Shown here: in pieces, positions 2,550 through 52,434 of the stretch
How the letters are laid out: the number at the start of each line of letters is the position of its first letter
Numbering within the stretch: the first letter of the stretch is position 1
NCBI GenBank assembly: GCA_944324375.1
Contig: CALUWB010000005.1
Span: 1 to 52,434, forward strand
Direction: 5' to 3'
Source: Candidatus Gastranaerophilales bacterium
GTDB lineage: Bacteria; Cyanobacteriota; Vampirovibrionia; Gastranaerophilales; Gastranaerophilaceae
Length of the DNA: 52,434 nt
Made by a program: the position numbers and the translations under genes
Notes under the pieces: generated by a model
What the model was told of the DNA's origin: nothing
Seen by the model: the letters and a program-made list of their open reading frames with translations, nothing else
Databases searched by the model: none

Positions 2550-3332
2550 CTATTCTGCATCTTTTATGTATTTATACATTAATGAATATGCTTTTTTTAG
2601 TTTTCTGGAAACCATCATTTCATTCATATTCATTTTTTCTGCAATATTTTTCTGTTTCATGTCTTCATAATAGAATAATTTGATTATAGTTTTTAATTCC
2701 TCAGGTAATCTTTCTATAACATCATCTAATTCTATTTTCATATCATAACGTTCGACAAATTCATTATAATCTCCTGCTGGAGTTAAATCCCCAATAGAAG
2801 CATTATTTTCTGAATCATTTACAATTTCATCTAAAGATACAATTTTTCGACGTCTATCAACATCAATAGCTGTTTGAACTTTTTGAACAGGAACATCAAG
2901 TGCTTGAGCTAACTTTTCATCAGTTAATTTTTCTAATTCTTTATCGGATAATGTTTTTGAAAAGTTCTTAATACGAATGGCTAGTTCCAAAACTTCTCTA
3001 GGAACTTTTATCATCGCAACTTTATCTCTCATATAATGTTGCATTTCACCAACAATTAAATAACCTGCATATATTCTAAACTTTGCATTTCTATCAGGAT
3101 TGTATTTTTCAATAGCTTTTACCAAACCAATAGAACCTGCTTGAACTAAATCTTCAACAGGGTCTTCTGCACGTCGAGCAATTGAACGAGCGATTCTTTT
3201 TATTATTGGCATCATTGCAACAACAATTAGATTTTCCAAACGTTTTTTTTGTACTCTCTTGCTTGTCTGTTTGTAGGCTTCAAGCCATTCTTGGATTCTA
3301 GTATAAATAGATTCTTCTACTTGTGTATTCAT
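2550..3332 (-). CDS. RNA polymerase sigma factor, group 3 SigF/SigB-like
   Basis: Alternative sigma-70 family factor of 260 aa. Region 2 is clear: DLVQAGSIGLVKAIEKY (core binding), then FRIYAGYLIVGEMQHYMRDK (region 2.3-2.4, -10 recognition) and a VPR motif entering region 3. Region 4 ends the protein with an HTH (QKNIAEKMNMNEMMVSRKLKKAY). The layout matches cyanobacterial SigF and Gram-positive SigB/SigF rather than the housekeeping factor, as there is no region 1.1 and no long N-terminus. There is no Shine-Dalgarno sequence. The ATG follows a TAATAT hexamer by exactly 6 nt, suggesting a leaderless mRNA. It is divergent from the NUDIX gene across a 39-bp gap and followed by the prepilin peptidase. 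No anti-sigma factor gene is adjacent. Confidence 0.92.
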   Translation of the reverse strand: MNTQVEESIYTRIQEWLEAYKQTSKRVQKKRLENLIVVAMMPIIKRIARSIARRAEDPVEDLVQAGSIGLVKAIEKYNPDRNAKFRIYAGYLIVGEMQHYMRDKVAMIKVPREVLELAIRIKNFSKTLSDKELEKLTDEKLAQALDVPVQKVQTAIDVDRRRKIVSLDEIVNDSENNASIGDLTPAGDYNEFVERYDMKIELDDVIERLPEELKTIIKLFYYEDMKQKNIAEKMNMNEMMVSRKLKKAYSLMYKYIKDAE

Positions 3333-5645: not shown

Positions 5646-6458
5646 TTAAGAAAAACATTTGAATGCTTTTTCTATATTGTCATTTCTTACTTGCTTCAAG
5701 GAATCCATTTCAGTTTTTATAGCATTTCTTTCTGTTTCAGTTTGAGAAAGTAAAGTATCATATTGTGCATCTTTTTTATTTATTCTAGTAGTTTCTGCTT
5801 CATATGTAGCTTCAGCTTTTTTCAATTCTTTTTCATCTTGAACTTCTTGTAACATCAAATCATTAGCTACTGTTACTTCAGTCCATTCTCCTTCACCATC
5901 ATCGCCACCTTCGGAATCCCACTTGTGAAGTAATACATCACCATTAGATAACATATTTGTTAACCACTCACTGCTATCTGCATAATTTCCATTCATATCA
6001 ACAAGTCCAGGAGCTGTTGACAATAATTCAAACAAATTACCATAATAAGCTTTTTCATTGTCATCTACGTCTGGATTTGTTCCAACCATGGCATTTATAA
6101 AATTTTCTTTATTTGTACTATTTGCTGTAAATTTTGCATTAATATCTGCATCTACCAAAAACTTACCAGCATCTGGGCCATTAATAATCTCTAAGGCATA
6201 TAATCCTTGAATACCATCATTATAACCTTTAAACATATTATTAAATGTTGCATCTTTATAAGTTATTGAACCATCATTTTCAATATACTTATATTGAATC
6301 TTTTTAGCATCTAACGCTGCCATATATTCATTATAAACTTTATCAGACTCATTAGAAAGTTGGAGCTTCTGAGCTTGAATCTTTTGAGCTTGATACTCTA
6401 TTCGATGCTGTCTTGATGTTAATTGCAGCAAACGTACTTGTGTCGCAGCTAAACCCAT
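5646..6458 (-). CDS. Uncharacterised coiled-coil protein with MGLAATQ-type N-terminus
   Basis: A 270-aa protein of unknown function. The N-terminus (MGLAATQVRLLQLTSRQHRIEY) is followed by a glutamine-rich helix (QKIQAQKLQLSNESDKVYNEY). A mixed alpha/beta middle has an acidic patch (EGGDDGEGEWTE), and a long C-terminal coiled coil covers roughly residues 205-262. The helix-core-helix layout recalls axial or filament proteins, but no known family can be assigned. No signal peptide is visible. A strong AAGGAG site lies 6 nt before the ATG. The upstream region carries the TGTAACA palindrome shared with the genes at 31840, 32272 and 45071, suggesting common regulation. Confidence 0.75.
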   Translation of the reverse strand: MGLAATQVRLLQLTSRQHRIEYQAQKIQAQKLQLSNESDKVYNEYMAALDAKKIQYKYIENDGSITYKDATFNNMFKGYNDGIQGLYALEIINGPDAGKFLVDADINAKFTANSTNKENFINAMVGTNPDVDDNEKAYYGNLFELLSTAPGLVDMNGNYADSSEWLTNMLSNGDVLLHKWDSEGGDDGEGEWTEVTVANDLMLQEVQDEKELKKAEATYEAETTRINKKDAQYDTLLSQTETERNAIKTEMDSLKQVRNDNIEKAFKCFS

Positions 6459-6504
6459 TTTTACTCCTTTTTCTAGTTTCCTTTGGTTTTATTAACGACA
6501 TATT

Positions 6505-6542
6505 AGTATATTTTCTTTAGTATTTGTAACACATTTGTTACA
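6505..6542 (-). promoter_or_regulatory. TATACT -10 with TGTAACA palindrome over the -35 region
   Basis: The minus-strand -10 candidate TATACT is at 6505-6510. Fourteen bp upstream lies the perfect palindrome TGTAACACATTTGTTACA (6525-6542, 7-bp arms, 4-nt spacer). A further copy of the half-site (TTTGTAACAAA) is at about 6552-6562. It would drive the coiled-coil gene starting at 6458. Confidence 0.5.
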
Positions 6543-6610
6543 ATATTAACTTTTGTAACAAATATATAAATTTGCTAGTATATTTTAATGAAAAATTGTA
6601 TAATCAGTAT

Positions 6611-6690
6611 ATACACAATACAATATAAAAATCCAACTATCACTATCTTTTTAAATCTAGTATGATTATTTAATCATACTTTTTTCTTTT
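6611..6690 (+). ncRNA. Candidate small RNA (about 80 nt) with own promoter and terminator
   Basis: On the plus strand a perfect TATAAT hexamer (6599-6604) is followed ~55 nt later by a 9-bp hairpin (AGTATGATT/AATCATACT, 4-nt loop, 6659-6680) and the tail TTTTTTCTTTT. No plus-strand gene precedes this terminator for more than 1 kb and no credible ORF lies between. A short untranslated transcript from about 6611 to 6690 is the simplest reading. The -35 region is not well conserved. The hairpin could instead serve only as the end of the leftward nth unit. Confidence 0.35.
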
Positions 6691-31839: not shown

Positions 31840-32070
31840 TTATGCTAAATAATATGTATTTTCACCAACTCCAGGTTTACGACTTTCTGGACTGAATGTT
31901 GGATATTTAGCATCTAATGAAGCTTGTATATTTTGTGGTTTTGGATCAAATTGAGCATAATTTACACCCTGTTGATAAGGTTGTTTTTCAACTTTTTTAG
32001 TATACTCATTACCACCAACTGTAAATGTTGGAGCTGTATACCAATTTAATTTTTCAATACCTTGAACCAT
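31840..32070 (-). CDS. Small lineage-specific protein (76 aa)
   Basis: Unknown protein starting MVQGIEKLNWYTAPTFTVGG and ending GVGENTYYLA. It is polar, rich in Tyr, Pro and Gln, without signal peptide or membrane segment, and probably largely unfolded alone. The ATG at 32070 is preferred (GGGA 9 nt upstream); the frame extends to a TTG at 32085. It is divergent from another small unknown gene (32272), and the two share one TGTAACA-type palindrome and closely similar -10 elements, so they are likely co-regulated. Confidence 0.6.
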   Translation of the reverse strand: MVQGIEKLNWYTAPTFTVGGNEYTKKVEKQPYQQGVNYAQFDPKPQNIQASLDAKYPTFSPESRKPGVGENTYYLA

Positions 32071-32120
32071 ATTTAAATTTCCCAATACAAAATATATTAC
32101 TTAACTCTATATTTATATAA

Positions 32121-32206
32121 AGTATTAGTTATTATAAAAATTGCCTTTTTTGTAACGAAATATTACAGAAATAATAAAATATGAAATTTAGACACGAGTA
32201 TATACT
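32121..32206. promoter_or_regulatory. Divergent promoter pair sharing a TGTAA-N7-TTACA palindrome
   Basis: The palindrome at 32151-32167 (TGTAACGAAATATTACA) sits between a leftward -10 AATACT (32121-32126, 24 bp away) and a rightward TATACT (32201-32206, 33 bp away). The sequences downstream of both -10s are alike (ACTTTATATA, then GAGTTAAG), as if one promoter had been duplicated in inverted orientation. The rightward element also matches the promoter of the 45071-46057 gene. Confidence 0.5.
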
Positions 32207-32271
32207 TTATATATATGTAAGAGTTAAGTTTAAGTAAGTCGAGTAAGTTAAGTTAAAAAGAAGAGGTTTTC

Positions 32272-32466
32272 ATGTCTTTTAATTTGTCTGGCAACCTGTA
32301 CCACAGGGCATGGCAGTTTCAAAAGTCTGCCAAAATGGGTGAACACAAGGTAGATGAAGATAAAGCAAAATATACTTTATCCTTCACAGATGCTTATGAT
32401 AAAACATCAGCAGCCCCCGTCCGACCAGTTCCACCTAAAAAGCATAAAATAGACTTAATTGGATAA
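32272..32466 (+). CDS. Small lineage-specific protein (64 aa)
   Basis: Unknown basic protein, MSFNLSGNLYHRAWQFQKSA at the N-terminus and a proline-rich end (VRPVPPKKHKIDLIG). GAGG 5 nt before the ATG is a good ribosome binding site. No membrane segment or signal peptide. It is driven by the rightward half of the divergent palindrome-controlled promoter, and prfB begins 26 nt after its stop. No family is recognised. Confidence 0.6.
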   Translation: MSFNLSGNLYHRAWQFQKSAKMGEHKVDEDKAKYTLSFTDAYDKTSAAPVRPVPPKKHKIDLIG

Positions 32467-33624: not shown

Positions 33625-33777
33625 CTATACTACTTTAGCCTCCTCAAAATAATCTACTACTGTTGCCATTACACTATCAAAAAAGTTTTCGAGTTCTAAG
33701 TTTACTCCATCTTTCAGTTCATTTGCTGCAATTGAATCTGACATACTTACAAACTCGAAATTTTGATTTAAATCCAT
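33625..33777 (-). CDS. Small acidic protein (50 aa)
   Basis: A short gene in the 385-bp prfB-fliR gap. The ATG at 33777 has GAGG 8 nt upstream; another in-frame ATG lies 6 nt earlier, too close to that site. The product begins MDLNQNFEFVSMSDSIAANE and ends with an acidic helix (FFDSVMATVVDYFEEAKVV). No family is recognised. A TGTTACA half-site lies ~93 nt upstream of the start. The rest of the gap (33784-33949) is AT-rich with two more TGTTACA/TGTAACA half-sites and no gene. Confidence 0.5.
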   Translation of the reverse strand: MDLNQNFEFVSMSDSIAANELKDGVNLELENFFDSVMATVVDYFEEAKVV

Positions 33778-33949
33778 AATCATTTCCTCACTTAATTCTA
33801 GTAGACGATACTTATTACATAATTAGATTACGGACACATTTCCATAAACTTTAGCAAATTTATTTAATTTGTTACAATAAAAAAATAAAACAAGGTAAAA
33901 TTCAATAATAATAAGGTTTTTTAAATTGTTACAAAAAAAGCATGTAACA

Positions 33950-34729
33950 TTAAAAGACAGCTAATAACATTTTCATAAATTGAGGAATTAAAATGTTCAA
34001 ATACTCAACTATAGGTCTAACAAACATTAAAGATAACAATAAACCTAAATATATTTTTAATGGGATAGAAACCATAAAAATATTCATCTGAGGCATAACT
34101 TTTGATGTAAAGCCTAATAAAACATCAGTAATTAATAATACGCCGAATATAGGTAATGCAATTTTTAGAGATATAACAAAAATTTGACTGACAATAAAAA
34201 TAATTTGATGAACAACTTCAGGCGAAAATCCAAAACCATAACCAATAGGCATACTTTGAAAACTATTATAAAATGCTGCAAATAGCCAATGATGAGCATT
34301 TAGTGCAATAAAAACCATTGTCATCATCCAAGTATACATTTGAGTAATCATAGGAGATGTACCACCAGACATAGGGTTTAGTGCCATATCAGCAGACAAG
34401 CCCATTTGTATTGAAAACATATTTGCTCCAAGTTCCATTGCAATAAATATTACGTTTGCGCAATAACCTATAGCAAACCCTATTAAAAATTCTCTGAATA
34501 ATATAATAGTAAGTTCAGGAACAGATGTTGGAGCTATAAAATTCATTTTTGCTTGAATCATTGGAAATACCAAGAATGATATTACAGCACTCAACCAAAT
34601 TTTAACCTGTTGAGGGATAGGAAATGTTGAAAACATTGGGGCTGTTGCAAACATACCACTCAATCTGGTTACTATTGCCATAAACAAAATAATATTTGCT
34701 GGTGAAAATATATCAAATAAATTAATCAT
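33950..34729 (-). CDS. fliR: Flagellar export apparatus protein FliR
   Basis: 259-aa membrane component of the flagellar type III export gate. It has about six hydrophobic segments and the conserved FliR/SctT patterns RLSGMFATAPMFS near the N-terminus, FLIGFAIGYCANVIF, and GLSADMALNP (equivalent to the GxxxxxxxDPxxG region). Its ATG overlaps the fliQ stop by one base (TAATG). fliP-fliQ-fliR is a complete gate-complex operon; FlhB and FlhA are not encoded in this window. The few TGTAACA half-sites just past its stop may belong to the neighbouring regulatory region. Confidence 0.95.
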   Translation of the reverse strand: MINLFDIFSPANIILFMAIVTRLSGMFATAPMFSTFPIPQQVKIWLSAVISFLVFPMIQAKMNFIAPTSVPELTIILFREFLIGFAIGYCANVIFIAMELGANMFSIQMGLSADMALNPMSGGTSPMITQMYTWMMTMVFIALNAHHWLFAAFYNSFQSMPIGYGFGFSPEVVHQIIFIVSQIFVISLKIALPIFGVLLITDVLLGFTSKVMPQMNIFMVSIPLKIYLGLLLSLMFVRPIVEYLNILIPQFMKMLLAVF

Positions 34730-35001
34730 TAACCACCTATCAATTTAGGAACTGTATCCATAAATTCATTAAAAGTACTAATAAATAAATTAAACATCCA
34801 AGGTAATAGAATTACCAACACAACAACACTACCAATAATTTTAGGAACAAATGTTAAAGTTGATTCTTGTATTTGTGTAACAGTTTGGAATACGCTGACA
34901 ATTAGACCTAAAACCATGCCGGCAATTAAAATAGGAACAGATAATTCTAAAACTAAAACAAATGATTTTTGTAAAAGTGTAATAATAATATCCTGATTCA
35001 T
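34729..35001 (-). CDS. fliQ: Flagellar export apparatus protein FliQ
   Basis: 90-aa protein with two membrane helices. It carries the FliQ/SctS signature: VLELSVPILIAGMVLGLIVS, then VFQTVTQIQESTLTFVPKII (the TQIQExTLxFxPK motif). It forms the outer part of the FliPQR export channel helix. It starts 3 nt after the fliP stop and overlaps fliR by one base, so the three subunits are made from one message. Confidence 0.97.
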   Translation of the reverse strand: MNQDIIITLLQKSFVLVLELSVPILIAGMVLGLIVSVFQTVTQIQESTLTFVPKIIGSVVVLVILLPWMFNLFISTFNEFMDTVPKLIGG

Positions 35002-35004
35002 ACT

Positions 35005-35763
35005 CTACCTCACAAACCCTTCAACAAGGGATTTAACAACAAGATACCATCCATCAACAAGAACAAACATGATTAACTTAAATGGTAATGCAATCATTGT
35101 AGGAGGTAAGAACATCATCCCCATAGAAACCAAAACAGATGATACAACAATATCAATAATCAAAAATGGTAAAAATATTACAAAACCTATTGTAAAAGCC
35201 GTTTTTAATTCACTTAATATAAATGCCGGTAATAAGCAATATGTTGGAACATCGTCTTTATTTTTAGGCTTTTCAATTTTCCCCATTCTAACAAATAGAG
35301 CTAATTCTTTTTCGCTTGTCTGCTTAAACATAAAATCACGCATTGGAACTATCGCTCTATCAATAGCAGCTTGTTGAGTTATTTGATTTTTCATATAAGG
35401 TTGCAAGGCTTTGTCATTAATTTGATTTAATGTCGGAGACATTACAAAGAATGTTAATATTAATGCCAAACTTGTAATAACTTGATTTGGAGGTAATGTA
35501 TTTACCCCAAGCGCCTGCCTTGTTAATGACAATACAATAACTATTCTTATAAATGATGTTGTCATTATAAATATACTTGGTGCTAAGGTTAAAATAGTTA
35601 ACCAAATAACGATTTGGACACCATTAGTAAAATCTTGTGGAGTATTCGCTGGCTGCATCCCAATATTAATATTTGGGAACGAAACAGGAGCTGCAAAAGC
35701 TGGTACTACAGATAAAAATGCAATAGCCAACCCTATTAATACATATTTTAATTTCCTATTCAT
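35005..35763 (-). CDS. fliP: Flagellar export apparatus protein FliP
   Basis: 252-aa core subunit of the flagellar export gate. Like E. coli FliP it has a cleavable signal peptide (YVLIGLAIAFLSVVPAFA). The family signature follows: SFIRIVIVLSLTRQALGVNT and PPNQVITSLALILTFFVMSP, then a periplasmic loop and PAFILSELKTAFTIGFVIFLP with GMMFLPP near the C-terminus. It is the first gene of the fliPQR operon, with AGGGAT upstream of the ATG. It is divergent from the subtilase-like gene. A flagellated lifestyle is therefore likely. Confidence 0.97.
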   Translation of the reverse strand: MNRKLKYVLIGLAIAFLSVVPAFAAPVSFPNINIGMQPANTPQDFTNGVQIVIWLTILTLAPSIFIMTTSFIRIVIVLSLTRQALGVNTLPPNQVITSLALILTFFVMSPTLNQINDKALQPYMKNQITQQAAIDRAIVPMRDFMFKQTSEKELALFVRMGKIEKPKNKDDVPTYCLLPAFILSELKTAFTIGFVIFLPFLIIDIVVSSVLVSMGMMFLPPTMIALPFKLIMFVLVDGWYLVVKSLVEGFVR

Positions 35764-42901: not shown

Positions 42902-42979
42902 TGTTGTTTATTTATTATTCAAATAGTTACAAACAGTTACAAAATACTGATGTATAATAACAACTGAGGGAGTATTATT

Positions 42980-44227
42980 ATGGAATGTTTTGATTTAGGA
43001 ATTATAGGTGGAGGACCGGCTGGCTATACTACAGCTCTATATGCTGCAAAGCAAGGTAAATCAGTAGTATTATTTGAAAAAGATGAAATAGGTGGAACAT
43101 GCTTAAATAGAGGTTGTATTCCAACAAAAATTTATCTTCATGCCTCTCACGTATATCAAGAAATTAAAGATGCAAGTAAAATCGGAATTTTTTCAGATAA
43201 TACAAATTTTGATTTTGAAAAAATATCAGAACATAAAAATAATACAATCCAAAAAATTAGAAAATCATTAGAACTAATGATAAAACAAGCTGGTATAATA
43301 GTTGTAAAAGAAGAAGCAAAAATTCTTACAAAAGATACAATAGAAGCAAATAATATTAAATATAATTGTAATGAAATAGTTATTTGCACAGGTTCAAAGC
43401 CAAAAGAAATTAAAGGGCTTGAATTTGATCATGACTTTATAATAAATTCTGATGACATACTTAATCGAAATCAACTACCAAAGGAAATACTTATAGTAGG
43501 ATCAGGAGCAATTGGAATTGAATGGGCAAGAATTTTATCTAGTTTTGATGTAGAAGTTATATTAACAGAAATTGCACCAAAACTTATCCCTCTTGCTGAT
43601 TGGGAAGTTTCTAAAAGAATTGAACGTCAATTTAAAATGAAAAAGATAAAATATTATACAGAAACATCAATAAAAACTATTGAAAACAAAAAAGTTACTT
43701 TATCTAACGATGAAATCATAGAACCTGATTGTATCCTTGTAGCAGCAGGTAGAGAAGTTGTAAAAAATAAAGGAGTTGAAAGATTAGAAGGAATAAAAAT
43801 AATTGGTGATGCAGCAGGAGAAATTCAACTAGCACATTATGCAACAAGCCAAGCAAAAGAATTAGTTCTAAATATTCCTTATAACAAAGAATTAATTCCT
43901 TCTGTTATATATGGAACCCCCGAAATAGCTTGGATAGGAAAATGTTTTAAATCAAAAGAAGAAGAAACTGGATATAATGTTGTAGTATATCCAATCTCTG
44001 CACTTGGGAAAGCCCATTGTGACGGTTGTATTGATGGGTTTATAAAAATAATATCTAAAGATAAAAAAATTGTAGGAGCACATATAATATCACCAGAAGC
44101 ATCGGCTCTTATCCAGCAAATAACAATTGCTATGCAAAATAATATTACTGTAGATAAATTGAAAGAAGTATGTTTTGCTCACCCAACATATTCAGAAGGT
44201 ATTTTTGAAGGGATAATGCAATTATGA
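42980..44227 (+). CDS. lpd: Dihydrolipoyl dehydrogenase-like flavoprotein, short form
   Basis: FAD/NAD disulfide oxidoreductase that reoxidises dihydrolipoamide. The 415-aa chain has FAD motif LGIIGGGPAGYTTALYAA and the redox disulfide in GGTCLNRGCIPTK (Cys41/Cys46). NAD motif ILIVGSGAIGIEWARIL follows, and the C-terminal active-site His401-Glu406 is in AHPTYSEGIFE. It is ~50 residues shorter than typical. The segment between VAAGREV and IIGDAAGEIQLAHYAT is compressed, removing the usual loop before the second FAD motif. Its stop overlaps lipA (ATGA), which supports a role in lipoate-dependent complexes; no E1/E2 or glycine-cleavage gene is in view. GAGGGAG lies upstream of the ATG. Confidence 0.9.
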   Translation: MECFDLGIIGGGPAGYTTALYAAKQGKSVVLFEKDEIGGTCLNRGCIPTKIYLHASHVYQEIKDASKIGIFSDNTNFDFEKISEHKNNTIQKIRKSLELMIKQAGIIVVKEEAKILTKDTIEANNIKYNCNEIVICTGSKPKEIKGLEFDHDFIINSDDILNRNQLPKEILIVGSGAIGIEWARILSSFDVEVILTEIAPKLIPLADWEVSKRIERQFKMKKIKYYTETSIKTIENKKVTLSNDEIIEPDCILVAAGREVVKNKGVERLEGIKIIGDAAGEIQLAHYATSQAKELVLNIPYNKELIPSVIYGTPEIAWIGKCFKSKEEETGYNVVVYPISALGKAHCDGCIDGFIKIISKDKKIVGAHIISPEASALIQQITIAMQNNITVDKLKEVCFAHPTYSEGIFEGIMQL

Positions 44228-45070: not shown

Positions 45071-46057
45071 TTATGCCTTTTTAGGAGCTGGCCATTCAAA
45101 TTTTTGTCCTTTACCTAATTCTCCAGGTCTAGCAATTGCAGGTTTTTGAGATTCTGTACTCATCTGAATTTTTGAATCAACTGAACCAGCTTTACCTGCT
45201 TCTCCTTTATTTACACCTGAATTTATTGTGTAAACATTATCAGTAATATCCTTAGTTTTATTATTTTCAGAATAATAAACAATATGAGATATTTTATACA
45301 TTGGTTGTTTAGTAGAATTATCAATACCTACGAAAGTATAAGTATAAACAGTCTCTTTACCTTTTTCTTTATTACCAGTACCATCAGTAACTTTAAAGGA
45401 CTCTGGATATCCATCTGAATTATTTTTACCAACTTCAGACACTTCACCATCAATATTTAAAGTCTGTATAGTTTTATTAACAGCTAAAGCCTTAGAAGCC
45501 TTATCAGTAGGATCTGCTGGCCCTACTGGATTAGCTGGATCTACTGAACCTGCTGGATCAGTTGGCTTTTCAGGTTTTTCTGGATCTGTTGGTTTATCTG
45601 GTTTTTCAGGTTTTTCTGGATCTGTTGGTTTATCAGATTTAGCTGTTTGCTCTGGATTTACAGTAGGTGTTGTATTTACTGTTGTAAAGTAACGGCTTAA
45701 GTTAGTAAAATAATTTTGGAATGGGAATTGTAAATTAGCTTGAAGGCTAGCCTGTTGAGGTCTAGCTTTTTTAAACAAGCCAGATAAAGCCCAAAGACCT
45801 AAGCCCCTAACGGCAGAACCAATTCCCCAAGATAAAAATCCTGAAGACCAAGATTGCGTATAACCACCACCAATAAAGACATTAACTTCTTTTTTTGATG
45901 GAATACCTCTAAATGCCATATCATAATCACCATTTTCAAGCCAACCACCACCTATACCATATTTTTTTGCATCACTAACGCCATAATTACCGTTATTAAT
46001 CCAAGTACTAAATGTATTATAGGGAGATGAAAATCCACCACGTCTATAATCAGTCAT
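45071..46057 (-). CDS. Lineage-specific protein with glycine/aromatic N-terminus and PEKP repeats
   Basis: Unknown 328-aa protein. The N-terminal ~110 residues are rich in Gly, Tyr and Trp (MTDYRRGGFSSPYNTFS; SWGIGSAVRGLGLWALSGLF is a possible membrane-active segment). A proline-rich linker follows with 12-aa repeats of the type PTDPEKPEKPDK and then PANPVGPADPTD. The C-terminal domain is predicted to be beta-rich (FKVTDGTGNKEKGKETVYTY). No signal peptide is evident. It resembles a surface or appendage-associated protein by composition, but this is not proven. AGGAG lies 9 nt before the ATG. Its promoter carries the TGTAACA palindrome. It is convergent with lipA (4-nt gap). Confidence 0.7.
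   Translation of the reverse strand: MTDYRRGGFSSPYNTFSTWINNGNYGVSDAKKYGIGGGWLENGDYDMAFRGIPSKKEVNVFIGGGYTQSWSSGFLSWGIGSAVRGLGLWALSGLFKKARPQQASLQANLQFPFQNYFTNLSRYFTTVNTTPTVNPEQTAKSDKPTDPEKPEKPDKPTDPEKPEKPTDPAGSVDPANPVGPADPTDKASKALAVNKTIQTLNIDGEVSEVGKNNSDGYPESFKVTDGTGNKEKGKETVYTYTFVGIDNSTKQPMYKISHIVYYSENNKTKDITDNVYTINSGVNKGEAGKAGSVDSKIQMSTESQKPAIARPGELGKGQKFEWPAPKKA
45567..45634. repeat. Tandem 36-bp repeat within the proline-rich gene
   Basis: Two near-identical copies (32-bp perfect core, starts at 45567 and 45603) encode the 12-residue PEKP-type repeat. The exact DNA identity indicates recent duplication and possible copy-number variation between strains. Confidence 0.85.
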
Positions 46058-46097
46058 GATAATGGCTCCTATTTAGAGTTTTACTATACATATATAA

Positions 46098-46155
46098 AGT
46101 ATATACAAAATATATAATTGACTTTTTTATAACCATTTGTAACAAAATTGTTACA
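46098..46155 (-). promoter_or_regulatory. TATACT -10 with upstream TGTAACA palindrome
   Basis: The perfect 18-bp palindrome TGTAACAAAATTGTTACA (46138-46155) lies 34 bp upstream of the minus-strand -10 TATACT (46098-46103), which sits in GTATATACTTTATATATG. The same -10 context occurs at 32201 with a palindrome 33 bp upstream. It is predicted to control the gene starting at 46057. Confidence 0.5.
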
Positions 46156-46242: not shown

Positions 46243-47382
46243 ATGAACAATAAAGTTGTAGTTTTAGAGAATGAAACAGAAGCAGCAGAATTAATAAGAA
46301 ATTATTTATCAGAAATAGAAGATATCGAATTAGATAAAATATATACGGACTATGATGAAGGAGTAGAATATTGTAAAAATACAAAGCCACATATTGTTAT
46401 ATATTCAACTACTGAAAATAAAATAACAAATAAAAATATTATTACACAACTTGCAGATAAGAATATTAATACAATAGTTTTATCCTCTAATTACACAACA
46501 AACTTAGTAATAGAAGCTCTAAGATATGGAGCAAAAGATTTTATCTCAAAACCAATTATAAAAAAAGATTTTATCAATTCAATAAAAAAATGCTGCAAAG
46601 AAATGGTAAAAACAATTAATAAATCCAATATAATATCAATATATTCCAATAAGGGAGGTATTGGTAAAACAACTATAGCAACTAATTTAGCAGTAGAATT
46701 TGCAAGACAAACAAGAGAAAAAGTTGTACTAGTAGATTTAAATTTACCATTAGGAGATATTACAACATTTATAAATATTAAACCATCAGTAACAATAACA
46801 TCAGCTATTGAAACAGCAACACACAAAGGAGCAGAAGCAGTATTCAATGCCTGTAAACAATATAAAGATACAAGTTTATATGTACTAGCAGAACCTATAT
46901 ATATGGAAGAGAGCCATACAATGACTCCAACACATATATATAAATTATTTGAATATTTAAGAGAATCATTCTCATATATATTAGTAGATGTTGGAACAAA
47001 TGTAGATAAAACTAATATAAAAATATTAGAACTATCAGATTTAATATTATTAGTATCTATTGTAAACCTTCCTTTAATTAGAAATTGTCAAAGATGCTTA
47101 GACCTATTTAACAATCTATGTTTTGATGAGAATAAAACAAAAATAATAATAAATAGATATTTAGAAAATGATGAAATAAAAATAGAAGATGTCGAAAAAG
47201 TTTTAAATCAAAATATATATTGGAAGATTCCCAATAACTATTTTACAATTATGTCATCAATAAATAAAGCAATGCCTGTATGTGAAATCAATGAAAATTC
47301 AAATGTTACATTAAGTTTCAGTGGTTTAGCTAGCAAATTAACTGAAGATATAATTGCAAAAGATTTTATAATTAACCAATAA
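46243..47382 (+). CDS. CpaE/TadZ-like protein: degenerate receiver plus MinD/ParA-type ATPase
   Basis: 379-aa protein. Residues 1-120 have a response-regulator fold (LENETEAAELIRNYL, GAKDFISKPI), but the phospho-acceptor aspartate position is Ser55 (IVIYSTTEN), so it is not phosphorylated in the usual way. From ~130 there is a ParA/MinD ATPase with deviant Walker A SNKGGIGKTT (Lys137, Lys142), LVDLNLPLGD and SYILVDVGTNVD. This architecture is that of CpaE/TadZ, which positions Tad pilus machinery at a pole. No other tad genes are adjacent; the prepilin peptidase at 1.6 kb could be a distant partner. Start supported by GAGGTGATTT before the ATG. Confidence 0.88.
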   Translation: MNNKVVVLENETEAAELIRNYLSEIEDIELDKIYTDYDEGVEYCKNTKPHIVIYSTTENKITNKNIITQLADKNINTIVLSSNYTTNLVIEALRYGAKDFISKPIIKKDFINSIKKCCKEMVKTINKSNIISIYSNKGGIGKTTIATNLAVEFARQTREKVVLVDLNLPLGDITTFINIKPSVTITSAIETATHKGAEAVFNACKQYKDTSLYVLAEPIYMEESHTMTPTHIYKLFEYLRESFSYILVDVGTNVDKTNIKILELSDLILLVSIVNLPLIRNCQRCLDLFNNLCFDENKTKIIINRYLENDEIKIEDVEKVLNQNIYWKIPNNYFTIMSSINKAMPVCEINENSNVTLSFSGLASKLTEDIIAKDFIINQ

Positions 47383-51097: not shown

Positions 51098-51800
51098 TTT
51101 ATATAATATTTTTACAACTTCACTAGTCGCAGGAAATGCTAAGATAATATTACTTTTAGTTTCTTTTTTAGGTGGTGTAATTGCATCTATATCACCTTGT
51201 TCGCTTGCGATGTTGCCAGTTGTAATAGGGTATATAGGTGGTTATGCAAACCAACCTCTCTCAAAAACAGTTGTTCAATTATTTTCTTTTATAATAGGAA
51301 CTGCAATAGTTTTTTCAACTATTGGAATAATATGCGCTTTAACTGGTAAGGTTTTTGTTTCTATTGCAGGAAATTACTTTATGTTAATTATTGCTGCAAT
51401 ACTTATGATTATGGGATTAAACCTTGTTGGAATACTTGATCTTCAAATTCCAAGTTTAGTTAATAAAATTCCACAATCAAAAGGAAATAGTATTTTCTTG
51501 TATCCTATGCTTCTAGGTGCAACATTTGCAATTGCAGGAACACCTTGTTCTACTCCTATTCTTGCAGGAATTATGAGTATTGCATCTGTCTCCAGTAATA
51601 TAATTATTGCTATATCTATGTTATTTCTATTTTCAATAGGGCAAGGTATTATTCTAGTTATTGCTGGAGTATTTACATCATTAATAAAACAATTCGGAAA
51701 AGTTATAGAATTTTCAGAAATTTTATTAAAAATTAGTGGGGTTATATTAATATTAGCTGCTTTATGGTTTTATTACAAAATATTTATACCATTTTTCTAA
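51090..51800 (+). CDS. ccdA: CcdA-type thiol transporter
   Basis: 236-aa polytopic membrane protein that moves reducing equivalents across the inner membrane. It has six hydrophobic helices with the paired cysteines in VIASISPCSLAMLPVVIG (Cys37) and FAIAGTPCSTPILAG (Cys153), each next to a proline as in DsbD/CcdA. It overlaps the thioredoxin gene by 8 nt and its stop overlaps the convergent fliI end by 4 nt. No heme lyase or cytochrome genes are in view, so the final substrate is unknown. Confidence 0.95.
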   Translation: MNNLYNIFTTSLVAGNAKIILLLVSFLGGVIASISPCSLAMLPVVIGYIGGYANQPLSKTVVQLFSFIIGTAIVFSTIGIICALTGKVFVSIAGNYFMLIIAAILMIMGLNLVGILDLQIPSLVNKIPQSKGNSIFLYPMLLGATFAIAGTPCSTPILAGIMSIASVSSNIIIAISMLFLFSIGQGIILVIAGVFTSLIKQFGKVIEFSEILLKISGVILILAALWFYYKIFIPFF

Positions 51801-52434
51801 ATTAATTTAATTAATTCCTGAATTGTTGTATCATAATCAACTTTTAAATCTGTTGACTGTTTCAAAAATTCATTAATTTTATCCATTTTTGAAATTGCTT
51901 CATCACACATTGGGTCTGAACCCCTTACATAAGCTCCAATATTAATCAAATCTTCATTCTTTTTATAAACAGCAAGTAAATTCCTAATTTTTCCTGCAGC
52001 ATCACGATGTTCTTTTGTTGTAATATCAGGCATTACCCGACTTAATGACTGAAGGACATCTACAGCAGGATAATGATTTCTGTGAGCTAAGTCTCTTGAT
52101 AGAACAATATGACCATCCAGAATACTTCTTGATGTATCAGAAATAGGTTCATTGAAATCATCACCTTCAACTAATACTGTATATAATCCTGTTATTGTTC
52201 CTTTATCGTTATTACCAACTCTTTCCATTAATTTAGGCATTAATGCAAAAACAGATGGAGTATATCCTCGTGTTGCTGGAGGTTCACCAACTGCAAGTCC
52301 AACTTCTCTTTGAGCCATTGCAATACGAGTTACACTATCAAGCATAAATAAAACATCTTTTCCTTTATCTCTAAAATATTCAGCAATAGTTGTTGCAACA
52401 AATGCCGCTTTAATCTTTACCAATGATGGTTGCT
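51797..52434 (-). CDS. fliI: Flagellum-specific ATPase FliI (partial, 5' end outside window)
   Basis: ATPase that energises flagellar type III export. The visible 211 C-terminal codons begin in frame before residue QPSLVKIKAAF, equivalent to the ATSDxPSLVR segment of FliI. They include LDSVTRIAMAQREVGLAVGE (the DSVTRxAxAQRE signature), PPATRGYTPSVFALMPKLME (catalytic and P-loop-neighbouring region) and SDTSRSILDGHIVLSRDLA. The N-terminal domain and Walker A lie beyond the right edge. It is about 16 kb from fliPQR, so flagellar genes are dispersed. An apparent TTG start at 52423 is internal. Confidence 0.95.
   Translation of the reverse strand, partial: QPSLVKIKAAFVATTIAEYFRDKGKDVLFMLDSVTRIAMAQREVGLAVGEPPATRGYTPSVFALMPKLMERVGNNDKGTITGLYTVLVEGDDFNEPISDTSRSILDGHIVLSRDLAHRNHYPAVDVLQSLSRVMPDITTKEHRDAAGKIRNLLAVYKKNEDLINIGAYVRGSDPMCDEAISKMDKINEFLKQSTDLKVDYDTTIQELIKLI

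What the first reader, a model, noticed from the sequence alone, without database searches (positions are those of the whole stretch)
32121..32206. Candidate regulon: TGTAACA-N4-TGTTACA palindromes in helical register with TATACT/AATACT promoters
The palindrome occurs upstream of four genes of unknown, lineage-specific type. The distance from palindrome edge to -10 hexamer is 14 bp (gene starting 6458), 24 bp (32070), 33 bp (32272) and 34 bp (46057). These are steps of about one DNA turn, as for a transcription factor that must face RNA polymerase. Three of the promoters share the context ATACTTTATATA. Arms and spacing (GTA-N10-TAC) do not match NtcA (GTA-N8-TAC), Fnr or LexA sites that I know. 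This could be an undescribed regulator of surface or appendage proteins.
Basis: partly seen in the sequence, partly recalled or inferred. Interest (0 to 1): 0.75.

Follow-up and report, generated by a model that had tools for sequence, protein, structure and literature searches.

The report
RpaB-type promoter code in gut cyanobacteria
The palindrome is one form of a DNA half-site that sits at fixed distances in front of two kinds of promoter across a family of non-photosynthetic gut cyanobacteria; the half-site matches the binding site of RpaB, the light-response regulator of photosynthetic cyanobacteria, which suggests a job for that 'light' regulator in bacteria that live in the dark.

Summary
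Perfect TGTAACA-N4-TGTTACA occurs at 6525-6542 and 46138-46155; 32151-32167 is a 17-bp variant. The genome is a Gastranaerophilales (non-photosynthetic Cyanobacteriota) gut MAG.

About 100 relatives show two conserved promoter classes built on the half-site TGTAAM/KTTACA. Class 1: TGTAAC-N17-TAAAG-N15/16-CCGT, a sigma-28-type promoter (133 matches in 28 of 98 genomes, control 2), usually with a second half-site exactly 10 bp further up. Gene 6458 is class 1; its proposed TATACT -10 is not conserved. Genes 32070, 32272 and 46057 are class 2.

The class 1 repeat is the reverse complement of HLR1 (KTTACAWW-NN-KTTACAWW), the RpaB site of photosynthetic cyanobacteria. Exact HLR1 is enriched in this genome (34 against 2) and in 85 of 85 family members sampled. 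The genome encodes RpaB with an identical recognition helix, and a FliA sigma. RpaB was known in these bacteria without known targets. Binding is inferred, not shown.

The parts
6525..6542 (-). perfect palindrome; its TGTAAC (minus strand) is the proximal half-site, exactly 17 bp upstream of TAAAG
6495..6519 (-). sigma-28-type promoter TAAAG-N15-GTCGT of gene 5646-6458
   Evidence: conserved in 7 of 7 orthologues
6554..6559 (-). further conserved half-site (GTTACA on the minus strand), 34 bp upstream of TAAAG
5646..6458 (-). class 1 target: member of a large lineage-specific paralogous family (MG[LM]AASQARLL...), long N- and C-terminal helices, variable middle
33625..33777 (-). 50-aa ORF MDLNQNFEFVSMSDSIAANELKDGVNLELENFFDSVMATVVDYFEEAKVV driven by that promoter; relatives in G002, G004 and G006 keep both
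32151..32167 (.). 17-bp palindrome variant TGTAAC-N5-ATTACA shared by two divergent class 2 promoters
32114..32156 (-). class 2 promoter GTTACA-N25-ATACTTTATATA of gene 31840-32070, with GGCAATTT element
32162..32213 (+). class 2 promoter ATTACA-N34-ATACTTTATATA of gene 32272-32466
31840..32070 (-). class 2 target, 76 aa, unknown
32272..32466 (+). class 2 target, 64 aa, unknown
46138..46155 (-). perfect palindrome upstream of gene 45071-46057 and of divergent gene 46243-47382
46091..46143 (-). class 2 promoter GTTACA-N35-ATACTTTATATA with GTCAATT element
45071..46057 (-). class 2 target, 328 aa, no Pfam or NCBIfam match
42926..42941 (-). exact HLR1 consensus TGTAACTGTTTGTAAC (reads GTTACAAACAGTTACA on +), 38 bp before the start of the dihydrolipoamide-dehydrogenase-like gene 42980-44227

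Best explanation
The palindrome belongs to a regulon controlled by the OmpR-family response regulator RpaB in Gastranaerophilales. RpaB binds the half-site TGTAAM (KTTACA on the other strand) as a pair of subunits centred near -55 to -60 and activates transcription from that fixed position, as on the low-light-activated genes of photosynthetic cyanobacteria. In class 1 the two half-sites are direct repeats with a 10-bp period (HLR1) and RpaB recruits or stimulates FliA (sigma-28) polymerase at TAAAG-N14/15-GCCGTA. In class 2 the same half-site lies 34-36 bp (or one turn closer) upstream of ATACTTTATATA, most often paired with an inverted half-site, which gives the reported palindrome, sometimes with a direct one. 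Targets are lineage-specific proteins plus, in one relative, flagellin. Shown by sequence: the two promoter classes, their spacing, the match to HLR1, and the presence of RpaB and FliA. Inferred: that RpaB is the binding protein, that it activates, that FliA reads class 1, and that the inverted sites use the same protein. The sigma factor for class 2 is unknown.
For: Composite class 1: 133 matches in 28 of 98 genomes, 2 for the reversed pattern. TGTAAC exactly 17 bp from TAAAG in 27 of 41 promoters of one protein family. Distal TGTWAM (at most 1 mismatch) at offset -10 in 32 of 46 non-redundant sites, mean 1.3 and maximum 6 at other offsets; W in 98% at -2/-1, as HLR1 demands. Exact HLR1 consensus: 34 against 2 in the own genome, mostly intergenic and in front of class 1 or class 2 promoters; 2223 against 310 in 85 family members, all 85 above control, and 980 against 167 in 106 genomes of other classes of the phylum. 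RpaB: NCBIfam NF045944 equivalog, 360.8 bits, cut-off 330; 70% identity to a Synechococcus MAG RpaB with identical helix DTRVVDVHISRLRSKLE. FliA: TIGR02479, 229 bits, cut-off 189.6. A class 1 promoter precedes a flagellin gene in G015. HLR1 consensus and activator position -45 to -66: PMC13421787. Direct HLR1 repeats also occur at class 2 promoters (L322, L326, L338), which links the two classes to one binding protein.
Against: No binding or expression data. OmpR-family regulators share similar half-sites; two further OmpR-type regulators (RpaA-like L121 and L120-like) occur in the same genomes and are not excluded. The palindrome itself is an inverted arrangement, not canonical HLR1; at gene 6458 its right half is lost in three of seven orthologues. 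FliA occurs in genomes without class 1 matches, so co-occurrence does not test that step. The -10 of class 1 reads CCGT where the usual sigma-28 consensus has CCGA. Promoters of paralogues share ancestry, so site counts are not fully independent.
Confidence: 0.62

Rival explanations
1. Another OmpR-type response regulator of these genomes (RpaA-like L121 or L120-like) binds the half-site; RpaB keeps a different, unseen role.
For: Most composite-bearing genomes outside the genus have three OmpR-type regulators. RpaA and RpaB share target promoters in S. elongatus (PMC13421787).
Against: The site matches the published HLR1 consensus position by position, including the WW columns, and RpaB's recognition helix is identical to the cyanobacterial one. 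The fourth regulator, L122, seems absent from most of the other genera, judged by the number of matches.
Confidence: 0.22
2. Two regulators: an RpaB-type protein on the direct repeats (class 1) and an unrelated dimeric regulator on the 17-18 bp palindrome (class 2), sharing a half-site by chance.
For: In class 2 the inverted TGTWAM at -11/-12 is the main partner (20 of 29 sites against about 1 expected per offset); palindromes are unusual for OmpR-family proteins.
Against: Several class 2 promoters carry the direct HLR1 repeat instead (L322, L326, L338), and the proximal half-site keeps a similar distance to the -10 region in both classes (about 34-38 bp).
Confidence: 0.3
3. No transcription factor: TGTAAC is part of an extended sigma-28 promoter or an UP-like element.
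For: Exact 17-bp spacing and an A-rich stretch just before TAAAG.
Against: The same half-site with the same 10-bp periodicity occurs at non-sigma-28 class 2 promoters, and class 2 spacing falls in two registers one turn apart; G and C positions are conserved as in a factor site.
Confidence: 0.04
4. Chance palindromes in AT-rich sequence.
For: Relaxed pattern not above shuffles in the window, and the 12-base core is not enriched genome-wide.
Against: 26 against 1 for the perfect form, 133 against 2 and 62 against 1 for the composites, and conservation upstream of orthologues.
Confidence: 0.01

Closest known systems
HLR1 / RpaB regulon of photosynthetic cyanobacteria (Synechocystis PCC 6803, S. 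elongatus PCC 7942)
   Same: Half-site KTTACA, 10-bp direct repeat with WW columns, predicted position about -67 to -52, orthologous regulator with identical recognition helix.
   Different: Targets are lineage-specific proteins rather than photosynthesis genes; class 1 promoters are sigma-28-type; an inverted version of the site is common at class 2; the organism group has no photosystems (literature).
FliA/WhiG (sigma-28) flagellar late-gene promoters
   Same: TAAAG, 14-15 bp spacer, GCCG-type -10; FliA gene present; a flagellin gene carries it in G015.
   Different: Fixed upstream HLR1-type site; -10 reads CCGTA rather than CCGATAA; serves a large unknown protein family.
NtcA site (GTA-N8-TAC)
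   Same: Palindrome with GTA/TAC arms.
PhoB/OmpR-type tandem boxes
   Same: Direct repeats of 6-bp half-sites at about one turn, upstream of the -35.
   Different: Half-site sequence and period match HLR1.

Membership tests
HLR1/RpaB regulon | KTTACAWW-N2-KTTACAWW direct repeat | tested here: met
   class 1 logo and offset test; exact consensus 34 against 2 in own genome
HLR1/RpaB regulon | the reported palindrome itself is an HLR1 (direct repeat) | tested here: not met
   6525, 32151 and 46138 carry inverted half-sites
HLR1/RpaB regulon | RpaB encoded in the genome | tested here: met
   NF045944 at 360.8 bits, cut-off 330; helix identical
HLR1/RpaB regulon | site at about -66 to -45 for activated genes | tested here: inconclusive
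   fits if the start lies about 7 nt after the -10; starts not mapped
HLR1/RpaB regulon | RpaB binds the site and responds to NblS | not testable with these tools
   needs protein and DNA; NblS not searched here, reported for Melainabacteria in PMC3787301
HLR1/RpaB regulon | photosynthesis genes as targets | not tested
   the targets looked at are lineage-specific proteins; absence of photosystems is from PMC3787301
sigma-28 (FliA) regulon | TAAAG, 14-15 bp spacer, GCCG-type -10 | tested here: met
   41 of 43 family promoters examined; -10 is CCGT, not CCGA
sigma-28 (FliA) regulon | FliA gene and flagellar export genes | tested here: met
   TIGR02479 229 bits; FliP 279.6 bits at 35005-35763; FliQ and FliR just under cut-off
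sigma-28 (FliA) regulon | FliA-dependent transcription | not testable with these tools
   no expression data
NtcA regulon | GTA-N8-TAC | tested here: not met
   GTA-N10-TAC or GTA-N9-TAC

The most novel reading that the evidence does not exclude
RpaB, known as the light and redox regulator of photosynthesis in cyanobacteria and plastids, works in non-photosynthetic gut cyanobacteria as the master activator of a sigma-28-coupled programme of secreted or cell-surface proteins. The HLR1 code then either predates photosynthesis in the phylum or was fully rewired, and it has acquired an inverted (palindromic) form not described for RpaB.
Probability: 0.45. Interest if true: 0.85.

Novelty: new variant of a known kind. 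Interest (0 to 1): 0.72.

Why it matters
RpaA, RpaB and NblS have been noted in Melainabacteria since 2013 with the remark that they 'may have another function' (PMC3787301), and no targets are given in the papers read here. This gives a concrete, testable target set with base-level spacing rules, a promoter grammar for an almost uncultured order of gut bacteria, and a way to ask whether the cyanobacterial light regulon grew out of an older surface or motility programme.

Tried and rejected
Relaxed palindrome scan of the genome: no enrichment. TATACT as the -10 of gene 6458: not conserved. Rfam and tRNA scans of the window: nothing. Pfam/NCBIfam for the target proteins: nothing. AlphaFold model of the 5649-6458 product (pLDDT 88.8, pTM 0.62) against the PDB: no significant match, best E 0.1; helical ends with a variable middle recall filament proteins but this is not shown. 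FliA presence as a test of class 1: uninformative, nearly universal. rpaB autoregulation: a TGTAAY is conserved in the rpaB leader, but no clear repeat.

Full report
What is there. The perfect palindrome TGTAACA-N4-TGTTACA occurs twice in the window (6525-6542, 46138-46155). The third site, 32151-32167, is TGTAAC-GAAAT-ATTACA, a 17-bp form. Within the window alone relaxed matches are at chance level. In the whole genome (2.03 Mb, 103 contigs) there are 3 perfect sites and none for the reversed pattern, and 6 against 1 when one mismatch is allowed. In 98 relatives there are 26 perfect sites against 1. In this genus and order, perfect sites mostly lie about 55-110 bp upstream of starts of lineage-specific genes and recur at orthologues: the 6458 gene in G002 and G007, the C16 gene in G003, G005, G007 and, further away, G041. 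A 12-base core with two mismatches is not enriched (136 against 143), so the motif alone is a weak predictor.

Organism. rpaB of this genome is about 84-91% identical to that of MAGs named Candidatus Gastranaerophilales or uncultured bacterium from rumen, horse and rabbit gut: a non-photosynthetic member of the Cyanobacteriota. The genome handles themselves are unnamed.

Class 1 promoters. The product of 5646-6458 belongs to a family with 23-38 matches per genome in the genus and matches in 52 of 58 relatives (matches to the two ends of one protein are counted apart, so genes are fewer). Upstream of 41 of 43 family members examined lies TAAAG-N14/15-xYCGT, a sigma-28-type promoter, and TGTAAC stands exactly 17 bp before TAAAG in 27 of the 41. 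The composite TGTAAC-N17-TAAAG-N15/16-CCGT occurs 133 times in 28 of 98 relatives, all in one family, against 2 for the reversed pattern. Its downstream genes include many unrelated small proteins and, in G015, a flagellin (the flagellin was recognised by eye from its N-terminus), so the pattern is not just one duplicated promoter. In the window a second copy (33830-33876, minus strand) drives a 50-aa ORF at 33625-33777.

The half-site is HLR1-like. In 46 non-redundant class 1 sites a second TGTWAM stands at offset -10 in 32 (mean 1.3, maximum 6 at the other offsets), with W in 98% at the two bases before the proximal half-site. This is the reverse complement of KTTACAWW-NN-KTTACAWW, the HLR1 consensus for RpaB (PMC13421787; PMC11633204). 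Taking that published consensus unchanged, without its outermost WW, the genome has 34 exact sites against 2; of the 30 loci read, nearly all are intergenic and most stand before a class 1 or class 2 promoter. In 85 members of the family the totals are 2223 against 310, every genome above its control; in 106 genomes of other classes of the phylum, presumed mostly photosynthetic, 980 against 167. If the start lies about 7 nt after the -10, the class 1 repeat falls near -67 to -52, close to the -66 to -45 window from which RpaB activates; this position is an inference.

Class 2 promoters. GTTACA-N20-38-ATACTTTATATA occurs 62 times in 34 of 98 relatives against 1. A GNCAATTT element lies about 17 bp before ATACTT. 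TGTWAM precedes GTTACA with a 5- or 6-bp core (20 of 29 against about 1 at other offsets), so the palindrome is the usual class 2 site. The 32151 site serves two divergent class 2 promoters, to 32070 (N25) and to 32272 (N34). Some class 2 promoters carry the direct HLR1 repeat instead (L322, L326, L338), which argues for one binding protein.

The regulator. The genome has four OmpR-type regulators. L119 is RpaB by the NCBIfam equivalog model (360.8 bits, cut-off 330), 70% identical to RpaB of a Synechococcus MAG, with an identical recognition helix. Most composite-bearing genomes outside the genus have three such regulators, leaving the RpaA-like and L120-like proteins as rivals. FliA is present. 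Literature: RpaA, RpaB and NblS were reported in Melainabacteria as having perhaps another function (PMC3787301) and found in three orders (PMC4040986). None of the ten top papers mentions HLR1.

What is shown and what is not. Shown: the two promoter classes, their spacing and breadth, the identity of the half-site with HLR1, and the presence of RpaB and FliA. Inferred: binding, activation, FliA dependence, and use of inverted sites by the same protein. Unknown: the sigma factor of class 2, the signal, and what the target proteins do. The model of the 6458 product is confident (pLDDT 88.8) with helices at 2-50 and 209-269 and a mixed middle, but has no PDB relative.

Noticed in passing
6590-6620: A block TATTGTGTATATACTGATTATACAATTTTT is nearly invariant in seven genus members upstream of the 6458 promoter; it may be a terminator of the upstream gene or another operator.
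   Followed up: no
2550-3332 (-): SigF-like group 3 sigma factor in the window, below the NCBIfam cut-offs; a candidate for reading the ATACTTTATATA promoters.
   Followed up: no
5646-6458 and paralogues on many contigs: Large lineage-specific family with conserved helical N- and C-termini and a variable middle, 23-38 matches per genome in the genus; flagellin-like layout but no PDB match.
   Followed up: partly
46243-47382 (+): Receiver plus ParA/CpaE-like ATPase gene divergent from the 46057 gene across the palindrome; the same arrangement occurs in G007 (L026), so it may be co-regulated.
   Followed up: no
42926-42941: Exact HLR1 38 bp before the start of a dihydrolipoamide-dehydrogenase-like gene, close enough for repression rather than activation.
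   Followed up: no
L119 and L123-L160, rpaB leaders: A TGTAAY within ATATTTTGTAAT is conserved in the rpaB leader of many Gastranaerophilales, perhaps autoregulation.
   Followed up: partly
33950-35763 (-) and 51797-52423 (-): fliR, fliQ, fliP and part of a FliI-like ATPase gene lie in the window (the FliI call is by eye).
   Followed up: partly
L003 1501-1518 (G000:C16:22263): Third perfect palindrome of the genome lies between a thioredoxin-like gene and a 79-aa lineage-specific gene; the arrangement is kept in G003, G005 and G007.
   Followed up: partly
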